Origin: Photobacterium leiognathi
Lineage (GTDB): Bacteria > Pseudomonadota > Gammaproteobacteria > Enterobacterales > Vibrionaceae
Reading direction: 5' to 3'
DNA: 64,000 bases
Assembly (NCBI RefSeq): GCF_030685535.1
Contig: NZ_CP131601.1
Location: 2,232,001-2,296,000, forward strand
This document shows positions 1 to 64,000 of this stretch, one piece after another. The notes under the pieces were generated by a model that saw only the letters and a list, made by a program, of their open reading frames with translations, did not search any database and was not told the origin of the DNA. The translations under genes were made by a program, and so were the position numbers. Every line of letters begins with the position of its first letter. Position 1 is the first letter of the stretch.

Positions 1-318
1 ACCAGTGTGATGCCCGTTTTACTATTACGTGATTTGGGATTAGCGCTGAAGAATTGTAATGCGCAAATTGCCTTTATCACTAACCTTGATAAAGAGCATG
101 GACCTGCAGGTAAAATGTCACTTGAAACCATGTTGCACTGGTGTGAGCGTGCAATGAATGGACGCAAAATTGATACTATTATAACAGATAAACCTCAACC
201 TGAATTAGCGCAGAGGTTTAACCTACAAATCGAAGATCTTGCGTCCAATAATCATGAATGGCGACATGATCGAGATAAATTAAAGCATGCGATTGATAAG
301 CTCATTGCTTCCCGCTAA
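1..318 (+). CDS. yvcK: YvcK/CofD-family protein, C-terminal part
   Basis: The reading frame is open from the first base, so the gene starts upstream of the window and only about the last 105 residues are seen. The fragment contains the stretch NLDKEHGPAGKMSLETML followed by a helical tail, which fits the C-terminal part of the YvcK/CofD-like (gluconeogenesis factor, UDP-GlcNAc-binding) family. Members of this family sit next to luxU-luxO in Vibrionaceae, which supports the call. Its last 39 bases overlap the end of the convergent luxU gene. The call rests on a partial sequence and on synteny. Confidence 0.7.
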   Translation, partial: TSVMPVLLLRDLGLALKNCNAQIAFITNLDKEHGPAGKMSLETMLHWCERAMNGRKIDTIITDKPQPELAQRFNLQIEDLASNNHEWRHDRDKLKHAIDKLIASR

Positions 319-639
319 TTGCTTATACTCAACAACCATACCTTCGACCATTTGTCTAAATTCAGACAAATGGTCAATCATCCAATCATCTTGACCTTGC
401 TTAACACGATACTCACATTCTTGTGCCATTAACGCTAAATCATCAGCACCAAAACTGGCAGCACTACTTTTGATTGCGTGGCTGATCTCACCAATCTGAT
501 CAACAGAAGGATGGTTAGATAACTGTTTTGAGTATTGCTCTAGCTCATCGCTAAACACGTTCAGTAATAAAGATACGGTATCTTCACCGACTTCATCTGC
601 AAGGCGCTTTATCGTTTCAGAATTTATCGTTGTTGCCAT
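280..639 (-). CDS. luxU: LuxU, phosphorelay histidine phosphotransfer protein
   Basis: A 119-residue single HPt domain protein. In quorum sensing it carries phosphate from the hybrid sensor kinases (LuxN/LuxQ type) to LuxO. The phospho-accepting histidine lies in the motif ISHAIKSSAASFGAD, typical of HPt helices, and the length matches the family. The start ATG directly follows the luxO stop (TAAATG), so the two genes are translationally coupled, with a GGGAGATGGA Shine-Dalgarno-like stretch inside the luxO end. The 3' end overlaps the convergent yvcK tail. Identity is well supported by the luxO-luxU pair. Confidence 0.93.
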   Translation of the reverse strand: MATTINSETIKRLADEVGEDTVSLLLNVFSDELEQYSKQLSNHPSVDQIGEISHAIKSSAASFGADDLALMAQECEYRVKQGQDDWMIDHLSEFRQMVEGMVVEYKQLAGSNELINRML

Positions 640-2094
640 TTAATCCATCTCCCTACCACTGGCGTTGTTTTCTTGCCAAGACTGTAATTTGCGATAAATC
701 GTTGACGGGCTAACTTCTAATAAACCCGCAGCTCTTGGAATATTGCCATCACAAGCGTCAATTGCCCACTGTATCGCTCTTTTTTCCACTACCCAGAGCG
801 GCTCTATTTTATTTTTCTGATGATCATGTGAATAGATGGATGCATCAGCAACGCTTTTTTCGCGTTCTTTATCAGGAATTGCTCTAGAATGAGATGCAAG
901 TTCTACGCCGTTAATTGCATTGATTGGCGGAGGTACCATTTCAAGTTTCACTTCATCGCCAGTGTTTAAAACCACAATATTGCGTATTACATTTTGTAGT
1001 TCACGGACATTACCCGGCCAAGAATAAGACTCAAATAGTCGTAGAACAGGCTCAGAGAAACGACTAAAACTTTTCCCCTCTTCTAACGACATTAATCCCA
1101 ATAACGCGTGAGCAATTTCGATAATATCTCCACCACGTTCTCTTAATGGTGGCAGTGAGATAGGAATGACATGAAGACGATAGTATAAATCTTCACGAAA
1201 ACGCCCTTCTTGTACTTCTTCCCAAGGGTTACGATTCGTTGCACAAACAAAACGGACATCAACGTTACTTACTTTTGATGAACCTACTTTTTGATAAGTA
1301 CCTGTTTGGATGAATCGCAGTAGCTTACTTTGCAGATCAAGATCCATTTCACACAGTTCATCGAGCATCAAGGTACCATTGTGTGCCATCTCAACCGCAC
1401 CTTGTCGTTCAGTCGATGCACCGGTAAATGCCCCTTTAACATGACCGAATAACTCACTTTCAATCAGATCTTTAGGTATTGCCGCACAGTTAAGTGCGAT
1501 AAAAGGCTTATCGTGACGAGGGCTCGCAGCATGGATCGCTTCTGCACAGACTTCTTTACCTGTACCACTTTCCCCCGTAATAAAGACTGTCGCCTTACTT
1601 GATGCAGCGGATTCAATAACACGGTAAACCGCCTGCATGGGTAAACTGTTACCAATAAAACCTTGATATTGAGCGCCTTCAGATTGTTTAGACTGGTTAC
1701 TCGCGTGAGATTTATTTTCTGCTTTAAGGACTTTATTTACAGTGATACGCAGCCGATCGGCTTCACAAGGTTTAATTAAGAAATCCTGCGCGCCATATCG
1801 AATCGCTTCCACGGCTATATCGATTGAACCGTGGGCGGTCATGATCACAACAGGAATATTACCGTGATCTTTTCTTACTCGCTCAAGTACCTCCATGCCG
1901 GTCATATCAGGTAAACGCAGATCTAATAAAATTAAATCCGGAATAATATCTTGAATAAAGCTCAGTGCTTCTTTACCTGTACCCACGATGCTTACATTAA
2001 GCCCAAGGGGATTTAAGTAAGATTTGTACAAGGCAGCAACTGACGCTGTATCTTCAACCATTAAGACTTGGCGTTGCTGTGCTCTGCTTTCCAT
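640..2094 (-). CDS. luxO: LuxO, sigma-54-dependent quorum-sensing response regulator
   Basis: 484 residues in three domains: an N-terminal receiver (phospho-accepting Asp about residue 58 in [13 protein letters not shown]), a central AAA+ sigma-54 activator domain (Walker A GESGTGKE, sigma-54 contact loop GAFTGA), and a C-terminal Fis-type HTH ([20 protein letters not shown]). At low cell density phospho-LuxO activates the Qrr small RNAs. I chose the ATG at 2094 because GGGAGGAG lies just upstream; a TTG four codons earlier overlaps that Shine-Dalgarno and is unlikely. Its target, qrr1, lies divergently upstream. Confidence 0.96.
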
Positions 2095-2199
2095 TGCTCC
2101 TCCCAAAATAAGCCCCTTAAACTAATTGTAATCAATAGAAAAAATTATGGGGGATAGATTTCTCTTTTTTCTATAATCGCATATTGAATTGCAAATTGA

Positions 2200-2243
2200 T
2201 TCGCATTTTGCGAAAAATAGTCTTTTATTGTGCAGTAGCGCAA
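2200..2243 (+). promoter_or_regulatory. Candidate LuxO upstream activating sites
   Basis: Two palindromes lie upstream of the qrr1 sigma-54 promoter. TTCGCATTTTGCGAA (2200-2214) is perfect around a TTT centre. TTGTGCAGTAGCGCAA (2228-2243) is nearly perfect. Both resemble the TTGCA-N3-TGCAA form known for LuxO sites, and their distance (about 65-110 bp before the -24 box) is usual for enhancer-bound activators. They also lie between luxO and qrr1, so they could take part in luxO autoregulation. Binding is inferred. Confidence 0.6.
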
Positions 2244-2308
2244 ACAAAAAAATGCTACTCAAATACAGTAAAAATAAGGAATTAGAAAAAAAATGAAAGA
2301 AATTAAAG

Positions 2309-2325
2309 TTGGCACGCTATCTGCT
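2309..2325 (+). promoter_or_regulatory. Sigma-54 (-24/-12) promoter of qrr1
   Basis: TTGGCACGCTATCTGCT matches the sigma-54 pattern TGGCACG-N4-TTGCW, with one change (CTGC for TTGC). The GC of the -12 box is at 2323-2324, which places transcription start near 2336, where the Qrr sequence begins. Sigma-54 promoters with distal LuxO sites are the known control of qrr genes. Confidence 0.85.
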
Positions 2326-2335
2326 TTATATGACA

Positions 2336-2441
2336 TGACTCTAAAATTTAGAGTCAACCTAGCCAACTGACGTTGTTTGTGGATTTTTTCACTAAAACAA
2401 TGACGCCAACCGAAACTCATTTCTCGGTTGGCTTTTTTTTT
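2336..2441 (+). ncRNA. qrr1: Qrr1 quorum regulatory small RNA
   Basis: About 105 nt. The 5' stem-loop is GACTCTAAAATTTAGAGTC. It is followed by the strongly conserved Qrr target-pairing core CTAGCCAACTGACGTTGTT, then a G+U-rich loop region, and ends in a 9-bp GC-rich hairpin with a U run. Qrr RNAs act with Hfq to repress the luxR-type master regulator mRNA at low cell density. The position between luxO and uvrB is that of the qrr1 gene in Aliivibrio, Vibrio and Photobacterium. The start is inferred from the promoter, the end from the terminator. Confidence 0.93.
2405..2441 (+). terminator. Intrinsic terminator of qrr1
   Basis: GCCAACCGA and TCGGTTGGC form a perfect 9-bp stem around a short loop, followed by nine T residues. 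This is the conserved 3' end of Qrr RNAs. Confidence 0.93.
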
Positions 2442-2447
2442 GCCAAA

Positions 2448-2476
2448 ATTCTCACTCTAGGCAGCAAAGTGAGAAT
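2448..2476 (-). terminator. Hairpin downstream of uvrB
   Basis: ATTCTCACT and AGTGAGAAT pair perfectly over 9 bp with an 11-nt loop, just past the uvrB stop and before the qrr1 terminator. Only TTTTGG follows on the uvrB strand, so termination strength is uncertain. Confidence 0.5.
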
Positions 2477-2492
2477 CAACAAAGAAAGGAAG

Positions 2493-4520
2493 TTAGCTAT
2501 TTGCGATAAATTGCTCTCTTAACTTTTGGATCTTATCTCGAGTTTCAGCGGCTTGTTCAAATTCAAGATTCTGTGCAAAATCATACATTTGCTTTTCTAA
2601 CGCTTGAATTTGTGACTCTAACTGCTGAGGTGTCAATGTTGAATAAGTGCCTTTCGTTTCAGCGACTTTATGAAGATCTGCCGCTCTATTGCGTGATTTA
2701 GCGCGAGGGTTAGTACCGCCCAACTCCAGAATATCACCGATTTTCTTGTTCAGTTTTTGAGGTGTAATACCGTGTTTAAGGTTATATTCCGTTTGTTTCT
2801 CACGACGACGCTGAGTTTCATTGATTGCACGCTCCATTGAACCCGTAATGCGATCCCCATAGAGAATTGCTTTACCTTCAATATTTCGAGCGGCACGACC
2901 AATAGTCTGGATCAAAGAGCGTTCAGAACGTAAGAAACCTTCTTTATCAGCATCTAAAATCGCTACTAACGAGACTTCTGGCATATCTAAGCCTTCTCGT
3001 AACAAGTTAATGCCCACTAACACGTCAAACTCACCTAAACGCAAATCACGTATGATCTCAACCCGTTCAACTGTATCGATATCAGAGTGCAGATAACGAA
3101 CTTTCACACCATGTTCTGTAAGATATTCCGTTAAATCCTCAGCCATACGTTTGGTTAAAGTTGTCACTAACACACGTTCATTTTTTGCCTCTCTAATATG
3201 AATTTCAGAGAGCAAATCATCAACCTGGGTTGCTACAGGACGTACTTCAATTTCAGGATCAAGCAAACCTGTAGGACGGACAACCTGCTCTGCAATATCA
3301 TTACTCGATTTCTCAAGCTCATAATTACCAGGCGTTGCTGAAACGTAAATAGTTTGAGGTGCTAAAGACTCAAACTCTTCAAATTTCATAGGTCGGTTAT
3401 CGAGCGCTGATGGCAAACGAAAGCCATATTCCACTAAATTTTCTTTACGTGAACGGTCACCACGGTACATAGCACCGATTTGTGAAACAGTAACGTGGGA
3501 TTCATCAATGATCAGTAAACCATCAGCAGGTAAGTAATCAAATAAAGTTGGTGGCGGCTCACCCTCAGCTCGACCACTGAGATAACGTGAATAGTTTTCG
3601 ATACCAGAACAGAAGCCCAGCTCGTTCATCATCTCAATATCAAACTGAGTTCGCTGGCTAATACGCTGCTCTTCGACCAATTTATTATTAGAAATAAACT
3701 GCTCTTTACGAACAATAAGCTCTTTTTTGATCCCTTCTATTGCCTCTAGAATTTTTTCACGAGGTGTCACGTAGTGGGTTTTAGGATAAATGGTTGTTCT
3801 AGGTAGATCTCGTTGGATCACACTGCCTGTTAACGGATCAAAAGAAGATATACATTCCACCTCATCATCAAAAAGCTCTAAACGAATCGCTTCTTTTTCA
3901 GATTCTGCGGGGAAAATATCAATCACTTCACCACGAACACGGAATGTACCCCGCTCAAACGCCACATCATTACGTGTGTATTGCAACTCAGCCAAGCGAC
4001 GCAGAATATCTCGCTGATCTAAAAAATCACCACGACGAACATGCAGCATCATTTTAAGGTAAGAATCAGGATCACCTAAACCATAGATAGCTGATACTGA
4101 GGCAATAATAATAACGTCACGACGCTCCATTAGTGCTTTAGTCGCAGACAGTCGCATTTGCTCAATATGCGCATTCACCGAAGCATCTTTTTCGATAAAG
4201 GTATCAGTAGTAGGTACGTACGCTTCAGGTTGGTAGTAATCGTAATAAGATACGAAATACTCAACCGCATTATTAGGAAAGAATTCTTTCATCTCACCAT
4301 ACAATTGCGCAGCCAAGGTTTTATTTGGAGCAAGGATTAATGTTGGCCGATTAGCTTGAGCGATAACATTAGCCACAGTGAATGTTTTACCCGAGCCCGT
4401 AACCCCAAGTAATGTTTGATGTGCAAGCCCTGAATCAAGTCCATCTACCAGCTGTTCAATCGCTGTCGGTTGATCACCGGAGGGAGAATATTCAGAAGCG
4501 AGAGAAAAAAGGTCGCTCAT
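2493..4520 (-). CDS. uvrB: UvrB, excinuclease ABC subunit B
   Basis: 675 residues, the usual UvrB length. UvrB is the damage-verifying helicase-like subunit of nucleotide excision repair: it is loaded by UvrA and then recruits UvrC. Visible features are Walker A GVTGSGKT near residue 40, the beta-hairpin [12 protein letters not shown] near residue 93, the DESH box, helicase motif [10 protein letters not shown], and the C-terminal UVR domain ([22 protein letters not shown]) that contacts UvrC. No clear CTGT-N8-ACAG LexA box was found upstream, unlike in E. coli. The qrr1/luxO neighbourhood is normal for Vibrionaceae. Confidence 0.98.
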
Positions 4521-4625
4521 AATTCATATCCAACAATAAATAACTGTTTACATTGTGGATAGACGCTTTGTAATGTCAACAACAGAAGTGATAGTTAAAG
4601 AAGCTAAATGACAGATAAAAAAATA

Positions 4626-5520: not shown

Positions 5521-5642
5521 CTAGCCTAACATCACGTGTTTACTAGGATTGTAAAAATCAAGAATTATTTTATATGAGCGATAGTGCTTATATGAATGAT
5601 TTGTGATTAAACGTAGTTTCGTTTCTAGATCCTCGCTAACAA

Positions 5643-5667: not shown

Positions 5668-5690
5668 CAAAAATAGCGCTAACTTAGTAA

Positions 5691-29426: not shown

Positions 29427-30050
29427 ATGAGCCAAGATAACGAATTCAATACCTTAAAAAGTCGCTTTCGCGGCTACTTTCCCGTCGTCATCGATGTCGA
29501 AACGGCTGGATTTAACGCTAAAACTGACGCATTACTAGAGATCTGTGCCGTCACATTGCAAATGGATGAAGACGGTTGGTTAAAGCCAGCGACGACTATC
29601 CACTTCCATGTAGCACCTTTTGAAGGGGCGATCTTAAATAAAGAAGCGCTGGAATTTAATGGTATTCGTGACCCGTTCAGCCCACTACGTGGCGCAGTAT
29701 CGGAAGAGCACGCATTAAAAGAGATCTATAAACAAATCCGTAAAGAGCAGAAAGCCTCGGATTGCTCACGCGCGATCATGGTAGCTCATAATGCCACCTT
29801 TGATCATAGCTTTGTAATGGCAGCTTCTGAACGCGCCAAACTAAAACGTAACCCATTCCATCCTTTTGCTACTTTTGATACTGCAGCACTAAGTGGTCTT
29901 GCTTTTGGACAAACCGTTTTAGCGAAAGCTTGCCAAACTGCAAATATCCCATTTGATAATCGTGAAGCACACTCAGCCCTTTACGATACCGAGCGTACCG
30001 CCGAGCTATTTTGTGAAATAGTTAACAAATGGAAGAAGTTAGGTGGTTGA
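29427..30050 (+). CDS. rnt: Ribonuclease T
   Basis: 207 residues, DEDDh exonuclease. RNase T trims the 3' ends of tRNAs and other stable RNAs. Exo I is [20 protein letters not shown] (Asp-x-Glu), Exo II is [12 protein letters not shown], and Exo III carries [13 protein letters not shown] with the catalytic His and Asp. Basic RNA-binding patches are present (KSRFRGYF near the N-terminus, [11 protein letters not shown]). Single gene with its own terminator. Confidence 0.97.
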
Positions 30051-30127
30051 CTACTAATGGCACCTCAAACAGATGAAACATAAAATCTGTAGTTTCATTT
30101 AAGAAAATTTCTGTATCAAACAATCAT

Positions 30128-33378: not shown

Positions 33379-33717
33379 TTACTCTGCTGAAGCTGCGTCG
33401 CGACGTGCTGCTGCTTCTTTAATTAGTGGCTGAAGCTCACCTTTTTGGAACATCTCAAGAATGATGTCACAACCACCGATCAGCTCACCTTCAATCCATA
33501 ATTGTGGGAATGTTGGTTACTGTGCGTAAATTGGAAGTTCAGCACGGATATCTGGGTTTTGCAGAATATCAACGAAAGCAAACTTTTCGCCACAGCCCAT
33601 TAGCGCTTGAGACGCTTGAGATGAGAAACCACAGCTTGGTAGCTTAGGTGAACCTTTCATGTAAAGTAGGATTGGGTTTTCAGCGATCTGCTGCTTGATC
33701 TTGTCGATAGTTTCCAT
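33379..33717 (-). pseudogene. grxD: GrxD, monothiol glutaredoxin, with in-frame TAA
   Basis: A full-length Grx4-type gene (about 112 codons) behind GAGGA, interrupted by TAA at 33517-33519. Before the stop it reads KGSPKLPSCGFS, the CGFS active site that holds a shared 2Fe-2S cluster, and PDIRAELPIYAQ. After the stop the same frame continues [17 protein letters not shown] and to a normal end. The interrupted position is the invariant Trp of WPTFPQ (E. coli reads NWPTFPQLW). Both halves are otherwise perfect, so the stop is either very recent or a sequence error; changing TAA to TGG would create TGGCCA. In the cell the protein delivers Fe-S clusters and senses iron. Confidence 0.9.
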
Positions 33718-34045
33718 AGCTTCCTCGTACAACTTTAATAGTAATAACTTAAACCCTACCATTCTACTTGGTTATCGTCACCAATAAAAATACTTTCCCG
33801 CTCCTAACCGACGGCTTTTAATTCAATCCTTAAGCATAGCACTATTTAACCTTGCTAATTAAAAGGTTATTGACGATTACCAGAACGAGGTATAGGGTAT
33901 TTTTTTATAGCCAAGTCTTTTAATAAAGAAAAAACTTGCTAAAATAAAACGGTCAGATTCAAAAATAAATTAAGTAAGCCTCGATGCTTACTGGAAGCAA
34001 TAATGTCGTGGCAAACGCCACCAAACCAATATGGAGAATTGAGCA

Positions 34046-34857: not shown

Positions 34858-36015
34858 GTGCACTATAAAAAACTATCCCCACTCCTGTTTACCATCATGG
34901 CGTTCACAGCAACAAGCTATGTTCAAGCCAGTGATGATGAGCAACCTCAAGCTGTTCCTGTTACCGTGGAACCGATTTCCACTAAAGAGTTCGTTGCCAC
35001 ATTAAATGAAGTCGGAAAAATCAATGCGATTGATTTTGCAGAGCTCACATTTAGTACCCCTGGCAAGCTAGTTTCGATTAATTTCAAAGATGGCGACGTG
35101 GTGAAAAAAGGCCAAACTATTGCCAAGCTCGACAGTAGCAAGGCAAAAGCCGATCTCGATAAAGCGGCAAGTTCACTCACCACAGCAAGAAACAAAGTGA
35201 AACGAGTGATTGAGCTCAATAAAAAGCAACCTGGTGCGCTATCAAAACAAGATTTTGAAGAACTGCAAGATGCCGCTAACCTTGCTGCAGCTGATTACCG
35301 CCAGCAACAAGCAATTTTAAAAGACTACATTATTACTGCTCCTTTCGATGGTGAACTCACTAATTTCACCAAATCAAAAGGCAGCATGATTGATGCTATA
35401 ACGCCATTAGTGAGCATTTATAACCTTGATCCGGTTGAAGTGTCATACACCATTAGTCAAAACGATCTCGGCAAAGCGGTAAAAGGTCAGCCCATCACGG
35501 TAACGGTTGAAGCCTATAAAGATATGACCTTTAACGGTGTCGTTGATTACGTTGCGCCAGCGGTGAACAAAAACACAGGGCGCGTGGCAATTCATGCACG
35601 TATTGAAAACCCGAACCACATTTTAGCTCCGGGTATGTTTGCCCAAGTAAGCCAAATGGTGAACGGTCGCACTGAACATATTGTAGCACCTCAAAATGCC
35701 ATTCTTGCCCATAATGAAGATCGTTATGTATGGGTCGTAGATAAAAACAACATTGCTACCAAACGATATCTAACATTAGGCGACAACCTCAACAATGGTT
35801 ATGTGATTGTTGAAAAAGGCTTAAAAGTGGATGATAAGGTTGTTGTTACTGGGCATCAGAAAATTGATGATGAAACACTGGTTAATATCATCAAAACCCA
35901 AACACCAACATCAGATGCGCCAGCACAAGCGCCAAAAAAGAAAACAACCGATCCTGCTAATGCGGGGAAAACAGAGAAAAAGACTGTAACGGAGCCAAAT
36001 CATGAAGCTACCTGA
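34858..36015 (+). CDS. RND efflux periplasmic adaptor (membrane fusion protein)
   Basis: 385 residues. The start is GTG: an in-frame stop lies 15 bases upstream and the next ATG would remove the signal peptide (MHYKKLSPLLFTIMAFTATSYVQA). HlyD/AcrA-type layout: lipoyl half (VVKKGQTIAKLDSSKAKADLDKA), a short alpha hairpin, the second lipoyl half (YIITAPFDGELTNF) and beta-barrel/membrane-proximal parts, ending in a Lys/Pro/Thr-rich tail. It links the inner-membrane pump to an outer-membrane channel. It overlaps the pump gene by 14 bases. No outer-membrane factor is encoded beside it. Confidence 0.92.
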   Translation: MHYKKLSPLLFTIMAFTATSYVQASDDEQPQAVPVTVEPISTKEFVATLNEVGKINAIDFAELTFSTPGKLVSINFKDGDVVKKGQTIAKLDSSKAKADLDKAASSLTTARNKVKRVIELNKKQPGALSKQDFEELQDAANLAAADYRQQQAILKDYIITAPFDGELTNFTKSKGSMIDAITPLVSIYNLDPVEVSYTISQNDLGKAVKGQPITVTVEAYKDMTFNGVVDYVAPAVNKNTGRVAIHARIENPNHILAPGMFAQVSQMVNGRTEHIVAPQNAILAHNEDRYVWVVDKNNIATKRYLTLGDNLNNGYVIVEKGLKVDDKVVVTGHQKIDDETLVNIIKTQTPTSDAPAQAPKKKTTDPANAGKTEKKTVTEPNHEAT

Positions 36016-39000
36016 AGTCTGTATTAAACATCCTGTTTTCGCTTCAGTGCTAAGTATTGCGATTATTCTTATTGGTCTATTTTCATTCCAAAAGCTGGCG
36101 ATTCAGTATTTCCCTGAGCACAACACACCTAAAGCAACAGTCACAGCCAGTATTGACGGTGCTAGTGCAGACTTCATGTCACGCAATGTTGCGACACATT
36201 TAATTAATGCCGCAACAGGGTTAGAAAGCGTCGATATTATGACGACTGACTGTACTCAAGGTAAATGTACATTAAATGTGAAATTTGACGATGGTATTTC
36301 CGATGTCGAATACGCAAATTTAATGAACAAACTACGTAGTAGTATTGAAGCTATTGCCGATTTTCCACCGAGTATGGTTGATAAACCTACCGTCACTGAC
36401 GATTCAGCAGATAAAAGCTCAGCCAGTAACATCATCACCTTTGTTAATAAAGGAACGATGAGTTCGCAAGAAATGTATGACTATATTGGTCAACAAATCA
36501 AACCACAGTTTCGACATATTTCTGGTGTTGGTGCCGTTTATGGCCCTTATGGTGGTGCAGCTAAAGCCGTACGTGTATGGCTAAACCCAAACCGCATGAT
36601 GGCATTAAATGTTAAAGCAGCAGATGTAGTTACAACACTGAGCGCATACAGTTCATCATTTACTGTCGGTCAAATTGTCGGTGAAGCGCGTAACTTCCAA
36701 ATTAACCCAGTTACCCAAGTCACGAGTGTTAAAGATATTCAGAATCTTGTGATCCGCGTGGATGATGGCAACATTATTCGCATCAAAGACATTGCTGATG
36801 TCAAAATGGGAGAAAACAGCCTAACGCCAAGCAAACTTAAAGTGAATGGTGAAACGGCTATGTCGCTTCAGGTATTACCACTAAAGAGTGAAAACCCTGT
36901 TGATGTTGCAGCACGTGTAAAAGCCGAAATCGAAAAGATGCAACAGCATTTACCTGATGGTCTTGAAATGAAGATGGTATATAACCAAGCCGACTTTATT
37001 CAGGAATCCATTGATCAAGGCTTTCATACCCTGTTAGAGGCGGTGGTTTTAGTTTCCGTTATCGTCGTGCTTTTCCTTGGCTCACTGCGTATTGCATCGA
37101 TCCCAATTATTACCATTCCAGTATGTATTATTGGTGTGTTTGCAGTGATGTCATTTCTCGGTTTCAGTATTAACGTACTGACTATATTAGCCATTATTCT
37201 AGCGATTGGTCTGGTGGTTGATGACGCCATTGTGGTTGTCGAAAACTGTTATCGTTATATTGAAGAAGGTGAAACCCCACTCAACGCAGCGATCAAAGGC
37301 AGTAACGAAATCATTTTCCCTGTCATTGCCATGACTATGACCCTTGCAGCGGTTTACTTGCCTATTGGTTTAATGTCAGGCATGACAGCTGATCTATTCC
37401 GTCAGTTTGCCTTTACCCTTGCAGCATCAGTGATCATCTCAGGTCTCGTGGCACTAACCCTCTCACCAATGATGAGTGCTTATTTAATTAAGCCTGTATC
37501 ACAGCAGCCTAAATGGTTTGCAGCCATTGATAAACAGTTACATAAGCTATCTGATAGCTATAGCAAACAACTCTCAAAATGGTTTGATCGTAAGGCACTG
37601 ATGGGTGGCATGGCGCTTGCGCTAATCGCACTATCAGGAGTGGCTGTGTGGTCGATGCCACAAGTGTTGTTACCAACCGAAGATACAGGCTTTATTGATG
37701 GCAGTGCTGAAGCGCCAACAGGGGTAGGTCGTCGTTATCACATCAAGCATAACTCTGAATTAAACAGTGTTATGGAAGATAATAAAGACATCGCAGCCAA
37801 TTTATCCTACATCGAAGGAACACCATCGAACCATATTTTGCTTGAACCTTGGGGCAAGCGCACTAAACCTGCAGATGAAATAGTGGCAGAGCTTACCGAT
37901 AAAGCAGCGAAGACCTTGTCTGCCTACAGCATGTCATTTAGTGTACGTTCGGCTGATGGTCTTAATGCTGCGACCAATTTGAAGCTACAACTAAAAACAG
38001 TTAATCGAGATAATACAAAGCTCAACGATACAGCGAACCGTGTCGTTAAAAAGCTGAGTGAATATGAAGGGTTAACGCGTGTTAAAAGCTCATTACTGCG
38101 TGATCAGCTCCGATATGACCTACGCATTGATCGCAATGCAATTATCTTATCAGGTGTAGCTTATACCGATGTAACTAATGCCTTATCTACTTTCCTTGGT
38201 TCATTGAAGGCGGCAAATTTACAGGCCGATGATGGTTATACCTACCCTATTCGCGTTCAAGTTAACCGTAAAGATCTCGGCAACTTCGATATTATCGATA
38301 AGCTTTATGTAGCGTCAGAATCAGGGCAAAACATTCCTTTGTCTGAATTCGTCTCGATTAAAGCGGTAACCTCAGAGTCTAACTTTAAGACTTACATGGG
38401 GCAAAACAGTGCAGAAATTACAGCAACCTTAATGCCGGGCTATACCGCAGGTGATGTGCGTAATTATATTGATAAGAACATACCAGAGCTGCTTGATAAC
38501 TCACAAAGCTACGCCTATGACGGTGTCGTGAAAGAGTTAATGGACTCACAAGATGGTACCCAAACACTGTTTTTGATGGCGCTTATTTTCATCTATTTGA
38601 TCTTAGCCGCGCAGTTTGAAAGCTTTGTTGATCCGTTGATCATTTTGCTTACCGTTCCTCTGTGTATTGTAGGCGCAGTACTGACCCTGTGGGTATTTGG
38701 GCAAAGCCTCAATATTTACTCACAAATTGGTCTATTGACCTTAGTCGGACTAGTCACTAAACACGGTATTTTACTGGTCGAGTTTGCCAACGAGCAACGT
38801 AAGCATGGCAAAACAGCCATTGAAGCGGCAATTCACAGTGCTCGTTCACGTTTACGTCCAATTTTAATGACATCACTGACCATGATTTTAGGTGCTTTAC
38901 CGTTAGCATTTGCATCAGGGCCGGGCTCATTAGGTCGTGTAAATATTGGCTTAGTCTTAGTGGGAGGATTAACCGCAGGGACATTCTTCTCACTATTTCT

Positions 39001-39100
39001 AGTGCCAGTTGCTTATGTCGGGATGAGTAAGTTAAGAGAAAAAGATGCGCTAAAAACCTTATTAAGTGGTCGTGGTTTCCGCCAGCGAAATCAACACTAA
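36002..39100 (+). CDS. RND-family efflux pump, inner-membrane permease
   Basis: 1032 residues, AcrB/MexB-like: a first membrane helix, a large periplasmic domain, a block of helices (about 335-500) with IGLVVDDAIVVVENCYR containing the proton-relay Asp pair, a second periplasmic domain, and a final helix block with GLVTKHGILLVEFANEQR carrying the relay lysine. It exports drugs or other amphiphiles using the proton gradient. The first 60 residues (FPEHNTPKATVTASIDGA) fit the RND class common in Vibrio. Substrate unknown. Translationally coupled to the adaptor. Confidence 0.93.
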   Translation: MKLPEVCIKHPVFASVLSIAIILIGLFSFQKLAIQYFPEHNTPKATVTASIDGASADFMSRNVATHLINAATGLESVDIMTTDCTQGKCTLNVKFDDGISDVEYANLMNKLRSSIEAIADFPPSMVDKPTVTDDSADKSSASNIITFVNKGTMSSQEMYDYIGQQIKPQFRHISGVGAVYGPYGGAAKAVRVWLNPNRMMALNVKAADVVTTLSAYSSSFTVGQIVGEARNFQINPVTQVTSVKDIQNLVIRVDDGNIIRIKDIADVKMGENSLTPSKLKVNGETAMSLQVLPLKSENPVDVAARVKAEIEKMQQHLPDGLEMKMVYNQADFIQESIDQGFHTLLEAVVLVSVIVVLFLGSLRIASIPIITIPVCIIGVFAVMSFLGFSINVLTILAIILAIGLVVDDAIVVVENCYRYIEEGETPLNAAIKGSNEIIFPVIAMTMTLAAVYLPIGLMSGMTADLFRQFAFTLAASVIISGLVALTLSPMMSAYLIKPVSQQPKWFAAIDKQLHKLSDSYSKQLSKWFDRKALMGGMALALIALSGVAVWSMPQVLLPTEDTGFIDGSAEAPTGVGRRYHIKHNSELNSVMEDNKDIAANLSYIEGTPSNHILLEPWGKRTKPADEIVAELTDKAAKTLSAYSMSFSVRSADGLNAATNLKLQLKTVNRDNTKLNDTANRVVKKLSEYEGLTRVKSSLLRDQLRYDLRIDRNAIILSGVAYTDVTNALSTFLGSLKAANLQADDGYTYPIRVQVNRKDLGNFDIIDKLYVASESGQNIPLSEFVSIKAVTSESNFKTYMGQNSAEITATLMPGYTAGDVRNYIDKNIPELLDNSQSYAYDGVVKELMDSQDGTQTLFLMALIFIYLILAAQFESFVDPLIILLTVPLCIVGAVLTLWVFGQSLNIYSQIGLLTLVGLVTKHGILLVEFANEQRKHGKTAIEAAIHSARSRLRPILMTSLTMILGALPLAFASGPGSLGRVNIGLVLVGGLTAGTFFSLFLVPVAYVGMSKLREKDALKTLLSGRGFRQRNQH

Positions 39101-48074: not shown

Positions 48075-49504
48075 TACTCAACCTCACTCGGCTGAGTATT
48101 CCAAGCTGCAATAATTGCATTGAGTTTTTTCTGCTTTAAATTACTAACTTCAAGTAATCGTGAAGGGTGATTATTCAATACATCCAAAGTTCCAGCTACA
48201 CCAAAACACTCAACAACATTGTTAGCAAGATTTACTCCGATGCCTTTAACTGAGGTAAAAAACTCGATTATCTGTTGTTGATTAAGCGCATCCTCTGTCT
48301 TATCTGAATCAATAGCTGCTGTTGGGTATTGCGCTTGCTCGACACCTAAATCTAGTGTCTTTTCTAATTCCGCTTGCGCTTTCGGTTCTAAAAACTTCGC
48401 TAAAAACTGATTCAGTCCGTTATCACCACTATGTATACCTTGTAAGTTCCAGACTTCACTTTACCACTCTTCATTAAGATCATCTTGGATGTTTTCTAGC
48501 GCATATAACTTATCTTGAGGATTTAATTCACCCGTATCCGTTGAAAACGACGCTTGTCCAAATGAGATATTACGCATCGTTCTCAATAGCGAGGAATCAA
48601 TTTTTCCCAACTCCTCCCAGTTTTTATGAGGGAAGTAAGGCTTTTTAAACATCTCAGGCGCCAGTTGCCACATTAGATATTGCCCAATCCAATCACGAAT
48701 ATAAGGGAAAGCAGCAAACGCCGTTGCACATTCTAAAATACTGTATTCATCGTTATGACTCACTGCAATATCACATGCCCAATATTCAGCTTTCGCAGCT
48801 TTAGATGCTTTAATTGCGACTTCCAGCACTTTCTCTGGAATGGCTTGATAATCCATACTGCCACCTTGGCTAGTATTGGTTAGCCACTCTCCTTCTGGCG
48901 GCCTACGCCAAAAAGCACACACAGGTTTATGCCCAATCAACATCACACGAATATCCGCTTTCATTGGAACAAAATCTTGAATATAAGCAGGAAAATAACG
49001 ACGTTCAGAAAATAGCTTTACTGCCTCATCAGCACTATCTACTTTGTGGACAAAATACCCACCGTAGTTTGATGGTCCATATGAACGCTTAATAATTTTC
49101 GGATAACTGGTCTCATTGATATAGTCAAGTGCCTCTTCCACATTATAAAATATCTTTGTTTTAGGTATAGGAAGTTGATACTTATGACAAAAGTGAGTGA
49201 CATTTTCTTTAGATTTATTACAAAACTGCGAATCCAAAGACGGAATAAACTTCACATTCGGAAGTGCTCTTGAGATATCGCGAAATGTTTCGTAAGCAGT
49301 AGCTGGAATGTTTCCGATCAGTACATCAATTTTTTTTCTCTTCACTTCATTGATAAAGCGTTGCTTATCATTAGCCCAATGATAAGTCACTTGCTCAATC
49401 TTATCCGGCCAACCTTTGAAATTCGAACGATCAAAGAAACGTAAGACATGATCTAAATAAAGTAAGCCTAGTTTTGGTCGAGAAGTTGTATTAACGCTTT
49501 GCAT
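48074..49504 (-). pseudogene. ATP-grasp ligase with C-terminal HhH domain, split by in-frame TAA
   Basis: Starts behind AAGGAGG. The first 347 residues are an ATP-grasp protein: KIIKRSYGPSNYGGYFVHK (nucleotide-binding lysine), DFVPMKADIRVMLIG, and a metal site SILECAT (Glu258) that lacks the usual Asn. A TAA follows directly after TGG at 48461-48463. The same frame then runs 128 more codons, ending exactly at the TAATG overlap with the M14 gene. The extension contains VKGIGVNLANNVVECFG...TLDVLNNHPSRLLEVSNLKQKKLNAI, a RecD2-like helix-hairpin-helix. Restoring Pro for the stop (TGG CCA) gives a 476-residue fusion. So it is probably intact in the organism. Confidence 0.75.
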
Positions 49505-53902: not shown

Positions 53903-53953
53903 GTTTAGTCATCTGATTAAACTTGCATTGAAGACTGAGAAGAATTGACATTT

Positions 53954-55834
53954 ATGGTCGCCAGCGGAAATACCTACAAAGAGAAAGTCTCACAGCTGAT
54001 TAGCTGGGGACATTGGTTCAGTTTCTTTAATATCATCGCAGCCATGCTATTGGGTACGCGATATATTACTCATTCAGACTGGCCTGCAACCTTGATCGGA
54101 CAACTTTACCTTTTGTTAAGTTGGGTTGGTCACTTTGGATTTCTTGTTTTTGGTATTTATATTCTCATTATATTTCCAGCAAGCTTCCTGATCCCATCAC
54201 AACGCTTAATGCGTTTATTTGGTGTACTCGTTGCCACTGTTGGTCTAACCGCCCTATTGCTTGATACCTATGCGTACCAAAGCGTTGATCTCCATTTAAG
54301 CCCACTGGTCTGGGACTTATTGTTGAGTGGCGATAAAACAGAATTAAATGCTCGCTGGCAGTACCTATTTGTTGTTGTTCCAGTCATCTTCCTCTTAGAG
54401 CTTATGTGCTCTGAGTGGGTATGGCGCAAACTTAGAAAGCTAACACGTAAACATGTTGGCGGTCCTATCGCTTTTGTTTTCGGCGTTTGCTTTCTAGGTA
54501 GCCACCTTATTTATATCTGGGCGGATGCAAACTTATACCGTCCCGTTACGATGCAACGATCTAATTTCCCATTCTCTTATCCGATGACGGCAAAAACCTT
54601 CATGGAAAAGCATGGTTTATTAGATCGACAAGAATATGCTAAACGTCGTGCTGAGCAAGGCGTACAAAACAGCGAGCTCGTTCGCTACCCTATTCAAAAG
54701 CTAAGCTTTAATGATCAAGGTACAGGTCAAAACCTGATGATCATTATGGTTGATAGCCTGCGCAGTGACATGGTCACGCAGACAGTGATGCCAAATCTTT
54801 CTACCTTTGCAGATCAAAACCTCGACTTCACCGATAATTACAGTTCAAGTAACAGCGATTCAACCGGTGTCTTTGGCCTACTTTATGGTCTACCTAGTGG
54901 TTATGCAAATAGTATTCGTGCTGAGAAAAAATCACCTATTTTACTGAATACCTTACAAAACCGTGGCTACCACTTTGGTTTATTCAGTGGTGAAAATTTT
55001 GAGCTGCCAATTTACCGTGAAGCTATTTTTGCCAATACTAAGCTAGCCACAACTGACTCTGAGCATCCAGATCAGGTACCAAGCGATGCCCATGCGCTTA
55101 AAGATTGGCAACACTGGCTCGCTCAACAAAAAATTGGTCAACCTTGGTTTAGTTTCCTTGAATTGACTTCCGTACAGCAATTTAAAGAAGGTGAGCATTA
55201 TAAGCCACGCTTTACTCCGTCTTTAGGCAGTAATGCCATTAATGAGAAAGGGGTTGATTCAACGTTACTTCTGAAAAACAGCTACCGTAATGCCGCTTTC
55301 CACATTGATGAAATGCTTGGTCGTATTTTCGCTGATCTTGAAGCTAAAGGCGTATTAGACAATACCATTGTTGTGATTGCTTCTAACCATGGCACTGAGT
55401 TTAATGAAACGGGTAACAATACTTGGGGCTCTGGCAGTAACTACAGCAAGTACCAAATTAAAGTGCCGTTAATCATTCACTGGTAAGATCATGCAGCACA
55501 AGATGTCACACGCCTAACCAGTAACTTGGATGTAGTACCAACATTAATGGAGTCGCTATTAAATGTTGCGACTGCACCATCTAATTACAGCTCAGGTGTC
55601 AGCTTATTTAATCAAAATGATAATCGTCGCTGGATATTATCTGGCAATGACGATGACATTGTTGTGGTGCAGAAAAAACAAACCACAGTTGTTGATAAGT
55701 ATGGTAATTACAACGTCTACGATAATAATTATCAGCTAAAAGATGAAGGTAAACCAAAGCTTTCAACACTGATGCAAGTAATGAATGAATTAAAACGTTT
55801 CTACGCGCCAAAACCGTACGAAAACAATAACTAG
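53954..55834 (+). pseudogene. yejM: YejM-like DUF3413/sulfatase-fold protein, with in-frame TAA
   Basis: The ATG at 53954 opens a protein with five N-terminal membrane helices (to about residue 190) and a periplasmic alkaline phosphatase-like domain (LMIIMVDSLRSDMV, NSDSTGVFGLLYG, VVIASNHGTEFNETG). In enterobacteria YejM/LapC controls LpxC stability and so lipopolysaccharide synthesis. At 55484-55486 TAA follows TGG (LIIHW-stop-DHAAQ) where relatives have HWP; the same frame continues for 116 codons (LDVVPTLMESLL) to a normal end. Restoring CCA gives TGGCCA and a full-length, roughly 625-residue protein. An error or a very recent mutation is likely. Confidence 0.88.
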
Positions 55835-60108: not shown

Positions 60109-60275
60109 CAAGATCTTATCTAACTGTGAAGTAATGACAAAACTCTACCTAAAACCCAGCATAGCAGCAAGAAATACTGGATATAAAAACAGTTTAAGAA
60201 GCATTATTTTGTTTATTTTATGTGATAATATCCACGCAAAATAAATGTAACGCTAGCCATACATAAGAGATTTGA

Positions 60276-61055
60276 ATGACTAAGCTAAAACCTTTCATCA
60301 TTTTGCTAACAGTGTTAATACTTTTCGGTTTTCTATGGGTAGGAAAACAGCTACTCGATAACGGTATGAATACTGACAGTCAATTTCATCCCCCTAAAAG
60401 ACCGCAGTTTGGTAGTATCATTAATATTAATGATAAGAAAAAAGCGTTTTTTGACTATCTCACGCCTTTTGTTGAAGAGGCTAATAAGCAGATCTTATTA
60501 GATCGTCAAGTATTAGAAGAGTTAAGCCAAGATCCAAGTAAGATCGATCCAGATAGTCACTTTATAGAAAACTTAAGTGAAGAGTATGATTTAGCCATTC
60601 CAAAAGACGGGATCACATCCGAGTGGCTTAATGAGTTACTAAGACGGGTTAATATTATTCCAACCCAACTTGTACTCGCGCAGTCAGCAATGGAATCGTC
60701 ATGGGGCACGTCACGATTTGCACTGAAAGGAAATGGCTTTTTTGGTCAATGGTGTTTTACCAAAGGCTGCGGCATTCCACCCCATGATCTCGATCCAGAG
60801 CATTATCACGAAGTACAAAGCTTCCCTACTGTTTATGCCGCAGTAAAAGCCTATTTTGATAATATCAATACCAATGATGCTTACGCTGAACTTCGTACCA
60901 TTCGTGCAAAGTTACAGGCAAACCATGAGAAAATAACCGCTGACGCTCTTGCTCATGGGCTACTGAATTACTCGCAAATCGGCCATCAGTATATTCAGCA
61001 GGTGTTAGAGCTGATCAAAACCAATCAGCAATTTATGCCTGAAACAACAACATAA
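60276..61055 (+). CDS. bax: Bax-family glucosaminidase-domain protein
   Basis: 259 residues. An N-terminal signal anchor (about 6-26) precedes a glucosaminidase domain: LAQSAMESSWGTSRFALKGNGFFGQWCF carries the catalytic Glu, followed by CGIPP, FPTVYAAVKAYFDNIN and LLNYSQIG. Probably a periplasmic peptidoglycan or glycan hydrolase. The name follows E. coli Bax; the physiological role is poorly known. Divergent from topB. Confidence 0.9.
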   Translation: MTKLKPFIILLTVLILFGFLWVGKQLLDNGMNTDSQFHPPKRPQFGSIININDKKKAFFDYLTPFVEEANKQILLDRQVLEELSQDPSKIDPDSHFIENLSEEYDLAIPKDGITSEWLNELLRRVNIIPTQLVLAQSAMESSWGTSRFALKGNGFFGQWCFTKGCGIPPHDLDPEHYHEVQSFPTVYAAVKAYFDNINTNDAYAELRTIRAKLQANHEKITADALAHGLLNYSQIGHQYIQQVLELIKTNQQFMPETTT

Positions 61056-61069
61056 ACTGACTGACAACA

Positions 61070-61112
61070 AAAAAGCTGACTATTGATTTATCATCAATAC
61101 GTCAGCTTTTTT
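61070..61112. terminator. Bidirectional terminator
   Basis: AAAAAGCTGAC pairs with GTCAGCTTTTTT, with an inner stem ATTGAT/ATCAAT. It separates bax from the convergent mnmH. Confidence 0.9.
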
Positions 61113-61137
61113 ATTAGCACATATTTTTAGGCAACGA

Positions 61138-62226
61138 TCATTGCGCTTCAAACCACGCTTTTACGGTTTGATAATCCCCTCTAAACACAATCCTATCGGC
61201 TTTTTTACTTAACTGATAGGTGTACATAGGATCGTAATATTGCTCAAGTAATGGCGCTAACCATGCCTCATGCTCTGCAACCGAACCTGTCGATTGCATC
61301 ACTTTCACGGCATGTTGCTGAGCGTCTAATATTTCTTGGTAACGCTCTAAACCTAAACGCTTGCGAATATTAAACATGCCTTTTTCTAAGTACTCAGCAA
61401 ATAACTGCCAGCCTTGCTCTTCACCATATTGTGCAACGTAATCGCGCTGCATGGTGATCACGTAATCATCTAATAGGCGTGCTAAACGCACATCCATTGG
61501 ATCATCAATAACAGCAATCGGGGCTTCTTTCATAGCAGCTTGCAATGATAACGGCACCATAACTCGACCGATACTTTTGCCTTCATCTTCATAGATAAAC
61601 TGCGTAACACCACGATCTTGTTTTTTTAGCATTTGTACCGCTAAATCGTTTTCAAATGCAATTTGCGTACGTTGTGGTGTAACGAAACGACCAAAAGAAG
61701 AACCACGATGATGTGCAGCCCCTTCTAAATCAATACCACAGGTTAACTCGTTAACCATGATGGTTTTACCGCTACCAGTATTACCCGCTACCACCATTGA
61801 CGGCTGCTTAGCAACGTCTTCAATCGTCTCAATTAAGAAGCGACGCAGTGCTTTATAGCCACCATTGATATAAGGAAAATCAATGCCTGCTTCTTTTAGC
61901 CATTGCTGAGTAATTTGTGAACGTAATCCACCACGGAAACAATAGAGATAACCATTAGGATTAGCTTCAAAAAAGGCCTTCCACTGGGCAACACGTGCTG
62001 CTTTTACATCACCATTGACTAATTGGTGACCCAGTTTAATTGCCTCTTGCTGGCCTTTATTTTTATAACAAGTCCCGACAGCAGCACGCTCATCATTCGT
62101 CATTAATGGACGACTTACCGACGTTGGGAATGCACCTTGTTCAAATTCAACAGGCGCACGCATATCCATTAACGGTGTGTCGTTAACAAACAAGCTGCGA
62201 AAATCATCGCAATTAGGACGTGGCAT
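61138..62226 (-). CDS. mnmH: MnmH (SelU), tRNA 2-selenouridine synthase
   Basis: 362 residues. The N-terminal rhodanese domain with catalytic Cys96 (YCFRGGLRSQ, as Cys97 in E. coli) is followed by a P-loop domain (AGNTGSGKT). It geranylates 2-thiouridine and replaces sulfur by selenium at tRNA wobble position 34, using selenophosphate from SelD. I take the ATG that overlaps the selD stop (TAATG); a TTG two codons upstream is unlikely. Coupled to selD. Confidence 0.96.
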   Translation of the reverse strand: MPRPNCDDFRSLFVNDTPLMDMRAPVEFEQGAFPTSVSRPLMTNDERAAVGTCYKNKGQQEAIKLGHQLVNGDVKAARVAQWKAFFEANPNGYLYCFRGGLRSQITQQWLKEAGIDFPYINGGYKALRRFLIETIEDVAKQPSMVVAGNTGSGKTIMVNELTCGIDLEGAAHHRGSSFGRFVTPQRTQIAFENDLAVQMLKKQDRGVTQFIYEDEGKSIGRVMVPLSLQAAMKEAPIAVIDDPMDVRLARLLDDYVITMQRDYVAQYGEEQGWQLFAEYLEKGMFNIRKRLGLERYQEILDAQQHAVKVMQSTGSVAEHEAWLAPLLEQYYDPMYTYQLSKKADRIVFRGDYQTVKAWFEAQ

Positions 62227-63260
62227 TAGCAAACCTCAATAAAGGTATCGCCATCCATTGGCTCTAGTTCACCAATCGCTTCAAGCAAAATATCGTATTT
62301 CTCAGCAATCGCCTTAAGCGCTTCTTCACAGTCTGGTGTTGCTGCGAGTAATAAGCCGCCAGAGGTTTGTGGATCGCACAATACCGCTTTTTGCTGCTCT
62401 GTCATTGCACCCAGTTTATGACCATAACTCATAAAGTTACGCTCAGTACCACCCGGTACACAACCTTGTTCAATGTAGTTATATACGCCAGGTAACGTCG
62501 GTACTTTATCAAACCACACTTTTGCTTTTAGGTTGCTACCTTCACAAATTTCAGCAAGGTGACCCATTAAGCCAAAGCCTGTTACGTCTGTTAGGGCTTT
62601 TACACCTTCAACCTCGGCAAAGTCGGCACCCGGCTTATTTAATTTGCACATCCAATCACGTGCCAATCCTTGGTGCTCATCAGCCAACTTAGCTTTCTTC
62701 TCAGCTGTTGTTAATACGCCAATGCCAAGCGGTTTAGTGATGTAAAGCTTACAACCTGCCTCTGCACTGTTATTACGTTTAACACGATCGGTATCCACAA
62801 TGCCGGTCACAGCAAGACCGAAAATTGGCTCAGGAGCATCAATAGAGTGACCACCAGCAAGAGAAATACCCGCTTCGCGGCAAACAGAGCGACCGCCTTC
62901 AATCACTTGTTGTGCGATTTCAGGGGCAAGGATATTCACAGGCCAACCTAAAATTGCGATAGCCATGATCGGCTTACCGCCCATCGCATAGATATCACTG
63001 ATCGCATTAGTGGCAGCAATACGGCCAAAATCAAATGGGTCATCAACGATAGGCATAAAGAAATCAGTGGTACTAATAATAGAAGTACCATTACCTAAAT
63101 CATACACTGCCGCATCGTCTTTACTTTCATTGCCTACCAATAGGTTAGGATCTGAAAATGGGGCTAACTGGGTGCGTAAAATGGTGTCGAGAACTTGGGG
63201 AGAAATTTTACAACCACATCCGGCACCGTGACTGTATTGGGTTAGGCGAACATTTTCCAT
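62226..63260 (-). CDS. selD: SelD, selenophosphate synthetase
   Basis: 344 residues. Makes selenophosphate from selenide and ATP. The active site is Cys15 and Lys18 in [10 protein letters not shown], so this is a cysteine rather than a selenocysteine enzyme. DDAAVY and [30 protein letters not shown] bind ATP/Mg. The ATG is preceded by GGAG at good spacing; longer in-frame upstream starts do not fit the family. Directly coupled to mnmH, pointing to tRNA selenation as the main use. Confidence 0.97.
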
Positions 63261-63474
63261 GACACGCTCCAAAAAAGGGAAAGAGTCAGGGATTCTACTC
63301 CTGCCCCTGACACCTGTCATCTTTGAAGCAAACATCGTTCGGTTTTTCCGTTGATATAAATCAAAAATCGCGCTAAAAACGACCAAACTAAGAAAAAAAA
63401 GGTGATCCTTTTCACGGTATTATTCACCGGATAGGTATCACCTCTTTAAAACTTATCGCTAAAATGTTTGCTGT

Positions 63475-64000
63475 TTATAGGTATTCAACAAACTTTGTTA
63501 GATCACGCTCATGTAATTTCGCTTCGCGACAATCGACTGATCCTAGGTATAGAAAGCCGACGATCATGTCTTCACCTTGCACACCTAACGCTTCACGTAC
63601 CACAGGATGATAAGCCCATGATCCTGTACGCCAAAAACCAGAGAAACCTTGTGCAACCGCTGCCATTTGCATTGCTTGTACCGCACAGTCGGCTGATAAA
63701 TGCTGCTCAATCACAGGGACTTTATGACCTTCAGTGACTTTACTGACAACCGTGATAACCATCGGTGCTCTAAATGGTGCTTTGGACGCTTTTTCAATCA
63801 CAAAATCTTCCAGCTCATCAGCTTTCGCAGCGGAGATTAAAATATCTGCTAAGCGCTGTAATCCCTCACCTTCAGAGACAATAAAACGCCATGGCATTAA
63901 ACCACCATGATCTGGTGCGCGAAGGCCTGCTTTAAAAATATTCTCTAATGCTTCGCCACTCGGTGCTGGTGCTGCCAGCTTAGGAATAGAGCGACGAGTC
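63475..64000 (-). CDS. ydjA: YdjA-like nitroreductase, N-terminus outside window
   Basis: The frame is open to the right window edge, so the first residues are missing; about 175 remain (starting TRRSIPKLAAPAP). FMN-dependent nitroreductase family: RAPDHGGLMPWRF (FMN/N-terminal signature), KAPFRAPMVITVV, ADCAVQAMQMAAVAQGFSGFWRTG and the terminal IVGFLYLG. It follows E. coli YdjA closely, and the ydjA-selD neighbourhood is also the enterobacterial one. Reduces nitroaromatics or related electrophiles; natural substrate unknown. Confidence 0.9.
   Translation of the reverse strand, partial: TRRSIPKLAAPAPSGEALENIFKAGLRAPDHGGLMPWRFIVSEGEGLQRLADILISAAKADELEDFVIEKASKAPFRAPMVITVVSKVTEGHKVPVIEQHLSADCAVQAMQMAAVAQGFSGFWRTGSWAYHPVVREALGVQGEDMIVGFLYLGSVDCREAKLHERDLTKFVEYL

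What the first reader, a model, noticed from the sequence alone, without database searches (positions are those of the whole stretch)
1..64000. TGGCCA is missing from the window, and all three premature stops sit where TGGCCA is expected
Reading the 64 kb by eye I found no TGGCCA. The sister hexamers are common: AGGCCA about 9, TGGCCT about 11, CGGCCA about 6, TGGCCG about 4. From base composition several copies of TGGCCA are expected. Three otherwise well-preserved genes are broken by in-frame TAA: grxD at 33517 (CAG TAA CCA), the second ATP-grasp gene at 48461 (TGG TAA AGT) and yejM at 55484 (TGG TAA GAT). Restoring Trp or Pro in each gives TGG CCA. Intact Trp-Pro pairs here use only TGGCCT or TGGCCG. 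The likely cause is systematic miscalling at a methylated TGGCCA motif, for example in a nanopore-only assembly, implying an MscI/BalI-specificity methyltransferase in this strain. The alternative is real selection against the site, but that would not explain the stops.
Basis: partly seen in the sequence, partly recalled or inferred. Interest (0 to 1): 0.75.

Follow-up and report, generated by a model that had tools for sequence, protein, structure and literature searches.

The report
Nanopore misreads at methylated TGGCCA sites
The missing TGGCCA sites and broken genes in this marine light-organ bacterium are almost certainly sequencing errors made where its own DNA-protecting enzymes put methyl groups, so a published reference genome carries false stop codons and false RNA changes.

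Summary
TGGCCA: 0 in the window (5.6 expected), 84 in the 4.75 Mb genome against 434 in the near relative P. lucens. The window has four such stops, not three (also RNase T, 30048). In 624 kb, 11 clean interior stops: 9 at TGGCCA-type sites, 1 at ACCGGT, 1 unexplained; reverse control 0 and 3. Strongest tests are repeated genes inside this genome: the 23S rRNA TGGCCA, intact in 8 of 8 copies of relative G010, is altered in 12 of 12 here, five ways; five tandem tRNA-Tyr genes, identical in G010, differ here only at TGGCCA (3 of 5 altered) and GCCGGC (5 of 5). By exact size the assembly is the P. leiognathi type strain ATCC 25521T, published as MinION R9.4.1 sequence without short reads. An otherwise identical intact YejM exists in another, unnamed assembly. 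Two cytosine-5 restriction-modification loci, not found in P. lucens, fit the two motifs: a HaeIII-like methyltransferase with a neighbouring restriction enzyme (candidate for TGGCCA) and one beside a Cfr10I/Bse634I-type enzyme (RCCGGY). Known kind of error, new case; enzyme specificities are inferred, not assayed.

The parts
30048..30053 (+). TGACTA in place of TGGCCA of P. lucens, P. malacitanum and P. kishitanii; false stop in the RNase T gene (fourth case, not in the finding)
29427..30050 (+). RNase T (rnt), called 207 aa; relatives 222 codons
   Evidence: TIGR01298 330.7 bits
33514..33519 (-). TAACCA (plus strand TGGTTA) where all eight aligned relatives have TGGCCA; false stop in grxD
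33517..33762 (-). grxD (Grx4 family monothiol glutaredoxin), called 81 aa; 128 codons in P. lucens, Ph5, P. angustum and SKA34
   Evidence: NF008086, below its cut-off over 65 of 115 positions
48461..48466 (-). TGGTAA where G010 and P. angustum have TGGCCA (SKA34: plus-strand CGGCCA); false stop in ATP-grasp gene
48461..49504 (-). second RimK-like ATP-grasp gene, called 347 aa; relatives 477 codons
   Evidence: PF08443
55481..55486 (+). TGGTAA where G010 and P. malacitanum have TGGCCA; false stop in yejM
53945..55486 (+). yejM/lapC/pbgA, called 513 aa
   Evidence: NF038282 576.8 bits over 475 of 584 positions
55487..55834 (+). in-frame remainder of yejM after the stop, 115 residues, all 115 identical to the intact protein P0241

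Best explanation
The missing TGGCCA sites and the stops at them are consensus base-calling errors, not DNA. The assembly is the nanopore-only (R9.4.1) genome of Photobacterium leiognathi ATCC 25521T. The strain carries a HaeIII-like cytosine-5 methyltransferase that probably methylates the fourth base of TGGCCA (inferred). Methylated sites gave an ionic current that base-caller and polisher read mostly as T or A, often with a second wrong base beside it; polishing with the same reads kept the error. A second system with a Cfr10I/Bse634I-type restriction enzyme does the same at RCCGGY. Shown: depletion, altered sites, altered rRNA and tRNA copies, presence of both loci, match to the published assembly. 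Inferred: methylation itself, which enzyme makes it, which cytosine.
For: (1) 23S rRNA: TGGCCA intact in 8 of 8 copies of G010, altered in 12 of 12 own copies, in five forms (6, 3, 1, 1, 1); ACCGGT intact in 8 of 8, altered in 9 of 12 own copies. (2) Five tandem tRNA-Tyr genes: in G010 all five are identical, with TGGCCA and GCCGGC; in own genome TGGCCA is altered in 3 of 5 and GCCGGC in 5 of 5, and nothing else in the 85 bases differs (compared by eye). (3) Genome counts against six relatives: GCCGGC 14 against 139-200, while CGGCCG is normal, 108 against 102-128, and so is GGGCCC, 58 against 37-77; ACCGGT 217 against 504-606 in the five nearest relatives. (4) Aligned to P. lucens, the inner GGCC of TGGCCA survives at 3 of 18 sites, of other GGCC hexamers at 108 of 157; inner CCGG of RCCGGY at 10 of 46, of others at 72 of 103 (P = 3e-5 and 5e-8). 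(5) 11 distinct clean interior stops, 5 found from 107 P. lucens genes and 8 from 223 G010 genes: 9 TGGCCA-type, 1 ACCGGT, 1 unexplained; reverse control 0 in 107 and 3 in 225 own genes. (6) Assembly match and method. (7) P0241, 626 aa, identical at 509 of 509 and 115 of 115 compared residues, with Pro at the stop. (8) Two cytosine-5 methyltransferase loci in own genome, no match in P. lucens, Ph5, P. angustum or SKA34.
Against: No raw or short reads could be mapped. 84 TGGCCA remain, 2 of 5 in the tRNA-Tyr genes, and why these were read correctly is not known. Some lost sites are ordinary evolution: at 2271573 seven other relatives share the own bases and at 2427133 G010 does, and at least 13 of the 35 G010 sites that own lacks differ only at the outer bases. 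One clean stop (2124735) fits neither motif. P0241 has no source or name; the tool shows '-' for proteins that the window encodes, yet the window's frame gives only 513 aa, so another assembly of the same or a near-identical strain is inferred. Two other relatives also carry PF00145 genes (GB-56, G010) without TGGCCA loss; GB-56's best one is 31% identical to the own enzyme over its length and G010's 28% over 229 residues. PADLOC's best models for the TGGCCA candidate are Druantia DruM ones. Single C-to-T changes alone could also be real deamination.
Confidence: 0.97

Rival explanations
1. Real avoidance: selection against the strain's own restriction sites removed TGGCCA and RCCGGY from the genome.
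For: Both depleted motifs fit the two restriction-modification loci present. Some sites differ only at outer bases, as ordinary evolution would do.
Against: It does not make stop codons in rnt, grxD and yejM, nor several different alterations of one 23S or tRNA site in one genome. Non-synonymous and stop changes make up 8 of 20 changed TGGCCA-core codons against 949 of 6493 elsewhere (P. lucens genes). A genome with a 66% identical methyltransferase has 3696 TGGCCA in 4.4 Mb, though that enzyme's specificity is untested.
Confidence: 0.02
2. Real mutation: deamination of methylated cytosine, with poor repair, turned TGGCCA into TGGTCA/TGACCA in the living strain.
For: TGGTCA or TGACCA make up 7 of 17 changed sites against P. 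lucens.
Against: Double changes (TGGTAA, TGGTTA, TGACTA, TAGTCA), transversions (TGTCCA) and RCAGGY/RCCTGY changes are not single deaminations; repeated rRNA and tRNA genes should stay alike.
Confidence: 0.01

Closest known systems
Modification-mediated nanopore errors (Listeria, PMC10687267; Neisseria, PMC12506013; passages read)
   Same: Recurrent mismatches at motifs or sites of strain-specific modification that survive polishing; in Neisseria mostly G/C read as A/T at 5mC sites.
   Different: Here two Type II palindromes with their candidate loci, found from a finished assembly alone, with false stops and altered rRNA and tRNA copies.
TGGCCA cytosine methyltransferase of Methylomonas sp. 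DH-1, AYM39_01025 (PMC7720504; passages read)
   Same: Cytosine methyltransferase, predicted as GGCC-type, shown there to methylate the fourth base of TGGCCA and to block MscI.
   Different: Its sequence was not at hand, so no direct comparison; no assay of the Photobacterium enzyme.
M.HaeIII (1dct, GGCC by recall)
   Same: Matches over nearly the whole length, residues 5-337, E = 6e-56.
   Different: Other GGCC palindromes tested genome-wide are not depleted here: CGGCCG 108 against 102-128, GGGCCC 58 against 37-77.
Cfr10I/Bse634I restriction systems (RCCGGY; table in PMC4652773, passage read)
   Same: Neighbouring restriction enzyme matches PF07832, E = 5e-58; RCCGGY is the second affected motif.
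   Different: Cleavage and methylation not assayed.

Membership tests
Modification-mediated nanopore error | native-DNA nanopore assembly without short-read polishing | tested here: met
   Total 4,750,881 bp, 3 contigs, largest 3,269,131 equal the ATCC 25521T row of PMC10763503; R9.4.1, Guppy, Medaka, Homopolish, rapid barcoding; short reads named only for two other strains
Modification-mediated nanopore error | mismatches concentrated at methylation motifs | tested here: met
   that the motifs are methylated is inferred
Modification-mediated nanopore error | errors vanish in short reads or amplified DNA | tested here: inconclusive
   One of the four window sites only: intact protein P0241 of unnamed source
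TGGCCA (BalI/MscI-type) restriction-modification system | cytosine-5 DNA methyltransferase | tested here: met
   PF00145 250.6 bits, open frame 376 aa
TGGCCA (BalI/MscI-type) restriction-modification system | neighbouring Type II restriction enzyme gene | tested here: met
   PADLOC PDLC03417 REase_II E = 2e-36 on the facing gene; no Pfam or NCBIfam match, best PDB match E = 0.25
TGGCCA (BalI/MscI-type) restriction-modification system | methylates and cleaves TGGCCA only | tested here: inconclusive
   Indirect: TGGCCA depleted, CGGCCG and GGGCCC not; no assay
Druantia type II (DruM) | DruM-like methyltransferase with the other Druantia genes | tested here: inconclusive
   DruM models score best; the ORFs of 150 aa or more in C3:2800001-2822000 are at most 481 aa, so no very large gene lies close by; a model search of neighbours failed
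Cfr10I/Bse634I-type system | Cfr10I/Bse634I restriction enzyme beside a methyltransferase | tested here: met
Restriction-site avoidance | loss by tolerated substitutions, genes intact | tested here: not met
   Stops and altered rRNA and tRNA copies

The most novel reading that the evidence does not exclude
A finished nanopore-only assembly records its own methylome: motif depletion plus discord among rRNA and tandem tRNA copies identifies active methyltransferases and their sites without raw reads. Here it would assign TGGCCA to the HaeIII-like methyltransferase and its partner restriction enzyme, whose named relatives among the 120 listed are called hypothetical or uncharacterised proteins.
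Probability: 0.6. Interest if true: 0.45.

Novelty: not a real feature. Interest (0 to 1): 0.35.

Why it matters
This assembly is the genome held for its species in the collection searched, and it is the type strain's. By comparison with the counts in P. lucens, hundreds of sites are probably wrong (an estimate), among them a site in every 23S rRNA copy, with false pseudogenes of conserved genes. Pangenome, pseudogene and rRNA studies would inherit them. The same test could be run on other nanopore-only assemblies.

Tried and rejected
Plasmid search with the 3 kb gene 36002-39100 gave nothing. The first rRNA alignment mixed strands and was redone. A loose stop scan and crude frameshift count were too noisy and were replaced; one search found 4 genes split between two frames and 333 intact, so frameshifts are not the main problem. 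A low GGGCCC count in the 464 kb stretch (1 against 8.0 expected) proved local: genome-wide it is normal. A scan of 4-, 5- and 6-mers lost in own against P. lucens ranked TACGTA (17 lost, 2 gained, 30 shared) level with TGGCCA (17 lost, 2 gained, 1 shared); TACGTA is not depleted in the window (8 found, 10.2 expected) and stays unexplained. Flanks of 24 retained TGGCCA sites were read by eye without a firm rule. One search gave 25 distinct stop positions; the filter (more than 12 codons from either end, no gap within two codons), run forward, left 11. Dropped: 2067748, 2067774, 2105438, 2209580, 2229071, 2262081, 2283728, 2288667, 2363589, 2363601, 2372890, 2378011, 2445400, 2446026.

Papers: PMC5754488 whole text (another P. 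leiognathi strain, JS01, also nanopore-only); PMC10763503 sections 8 and 14 and passages; passages only of PMC7720504, PMC10687267, PMC12506013, PMC5489566, PMC4652773, PMC6092372, PMC12016153; others only in search listings. No report of this artefact in this genome was seen in searches (listings); the main text of PMC10763503 holds no word beginning 'methyl', 'pseudogene' or 'premature'. In PMC6092372 TGGCCA is reported with m6A, so the motif alone does not fix the kind of mark.
Full report
What was checked. TGGCCA is absent from the window while 5.6 copies are expected, and the sister counts of the finding are exact. In the whole genome (three contigs, 4,750,881 bases) it occurs 84 times, against 434 in P. 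lucens and 506-724 in Ph5, P. angustum, GB-56 and SKA34. Among the 23 other genomes of the same genus the lowest count is 397, in an incomplete 2.7 Mb genome; the lowest of all 39 relatives there is 127, in 2.2 Mb. A 464 kb stretch around the window has 9 where 45.9 are expected. So the depletion is genome-wide and peculiar to this assembly.

A second motif. In the same stretch GCCGGC is 1 against 8.5 expected, while P. lucens has 10 against 10.8. Genome-wide GCCGGC is 14 against 139-200 in six relatives, and CGGCCG is normal, 108 against 102-128, as is GGGCCC, 58 against 37-77. ACCGGT, the reversed control of TGGCCA, is 217 against 504 in P. lucens. RCCGGY is thus affected as well, and the first motif is TGGCCA rather than YGGCCR or GGCC at large.

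Two fitting loci. A search for cytosine-5 DNA methyltransferases (PF00145) found two in this genome and no match in P. lucens, Ph5, P. angustum or SKA34; G010 had one match and GB-56 five matched stretches. GB-56's best is 31% identical to the own enzyme of locus one, and G010's 28% over 229 residues. Locus one, C3:2808717: a 376 aa enzyme that matches M.HaeIII over residues 5-337, facing a gene that a PADLOC model calls a Type II restriction enzyme. PADLOC's best models for the methyltransferase itself are Druantia DruM ones, but no gene over 481 aa was seen in the 22 kb around it. Relatives of the two genes share 24 longest-contig lengths in the two hit lists (read by eye), which suggests that they travel together. 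Locus two, C3:2096568: a methyltransferase beside a Cfr10I/Bse634I-type restriction enzyme, E = 5e-58, a family whose two named members cut RCCGGY (PMC4652773). In Methylomonas sp. DH-1 a cytosine methyltransferase was shown to methylate the fourth base of TGGCCA (PMC7720504).

Site by site. Against P. lucens (143 kb aligned, 93.6% identical) own keeps TGGCCA at 1 of 18 sites. Inner positions 3 or 4 are changed at 14 of the 17 lost sites. The inner GGCC stays at 3 of 18, against 108 of 157 for other GGCC hexamers; the inner CCGG of RCCGGY stays at 10 of 46, against 72 of 103. Not all losses are errors: at 2271573 and 2427133 other relatives share the own bases.

Stops. Reading 107 P. lucens and 223 G010 genes into own DNA, with ends and gap-adjacent codons left out, gave 5 and 8 interior stops, 11 distinct. 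At 7 a relative has TGGCCA; at 2 the relative has Trp-Pro as TGGCCT or TGGCCG and own has TGACCA or TAGTCA; 1 is ACCGGT in P. lucens; 1 (2124735) is unexplained. The reverse control, own genes read in the relatives with the same filter, gave 0 stops in 107 genes and 3 in 225. Four of the 11 are in the window: RNase T, grxD, an ATP-grasp gene and yejM.

The strongest tests. The 12 copies of 23S rRNA in this genome carry TGAGTA (6), TGACTA (3), TGTCCA, TTACCA and TGACCA (1 each) at a site that is TGGCCA in all 8 copies of G010. An ACCGGT site, 8 of 8 in G010, is intact in 3 of 12 own copies. Five tandem tRNA-Tyr genes tell the same: G010's five are identical and carry TGGCCA and GCCGGC; own copies carry TGACTA, TGGCCA, TGGCCA, TGGTCA, TGACTA, and GCTAGC, GCTGAC, GCGAGC, GCCAGC, GCCAGC, with the rest of the 85 bases unchanged (compared by eye). 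Repeated RNA genes of one genome do not come to differ only inside two restriction motifs by evolution; this is what a base-caller does at an unreadable site. Some one-base deletions in runs of one base occur in 2 to 7 own 23S copies, at columns where all 8 G010 copies agree.

Where the sequence comes from. PMC10763503 lists ATCC 25521T with 4,750,881 bp, 3 contigs and a largest contig of 3,269,131, the sizes of this genome. It was sequenced with the rapid barcoding kit on R9.4.1, called with Guppy 6.1.7, assembled with Flye and polished with Medaka and Homopolish; short reads are named only for two other strains. An intact YejM of 626 aa, identical at every compared residue on both sides of the stop (509 of 509, 115 of 115) with Pro at the stop, was found in an assembly whose longest contig is 237,947 bases; its source is not named. 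Of 60 proteins of 626 aa among the 120 listed, 59 have Trp-Pro at that place counted from the end.

Against avoidance. The one other genome with a close relative of the methyltransferase (66% identical; 1 of 393 others sampled from the order) has 3696 TGGCCA in 4.4 Mb; its specificity is unknown, so this is weak. Coding damage and discord among RNA gene copies are the stronger arguments.

Verdict. An artefact of a known kind, in a type-strain genome. What is real is the pair of restriction-modification loci that the artefact points to; their specificities await an assay.

Noticed in passing
G000:C3:2224145 (outside the window): In-frame TAG in a 307-codon gene where P. lucens has ACCGGT: the RCCGGY counterpart of the TGGCCA stops.
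   Followed up: partly
G000:C3:2124735 (outside the window): Clean in-frame TAA (relative: CAT, codon 39 of 452) at neither motif; true pseudogene, another modification, or another error.
   Followed up: partly
own against P. lucens alignments: TACGTA lost 17 times, gained 2, shared 30; not depleted in the window. Unexplained.
   Followed up: no
G000 23S rRNA copies (L173-L191): One-base deletions in G or C runs in 2 of 12 copies each, and a T-run deletion in 7 of 12, at columns where G010's 8 copies agree.
   Followed up: partly
G000:C3:2474034-2474729: Five tandem tRNA-Tyr genes, of which two keep TGGCCA and none keeps GCCGGC; why 84 sites in the genome were read correctly is open.
   Followed up: partly
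P. leiognathi JS01 (PMC5754488): An older nanopore-only genome of the species whose authors report 1,682 predicted pseudogenes, ascribed by them to indel errors; not examined here.
   Followed up: no
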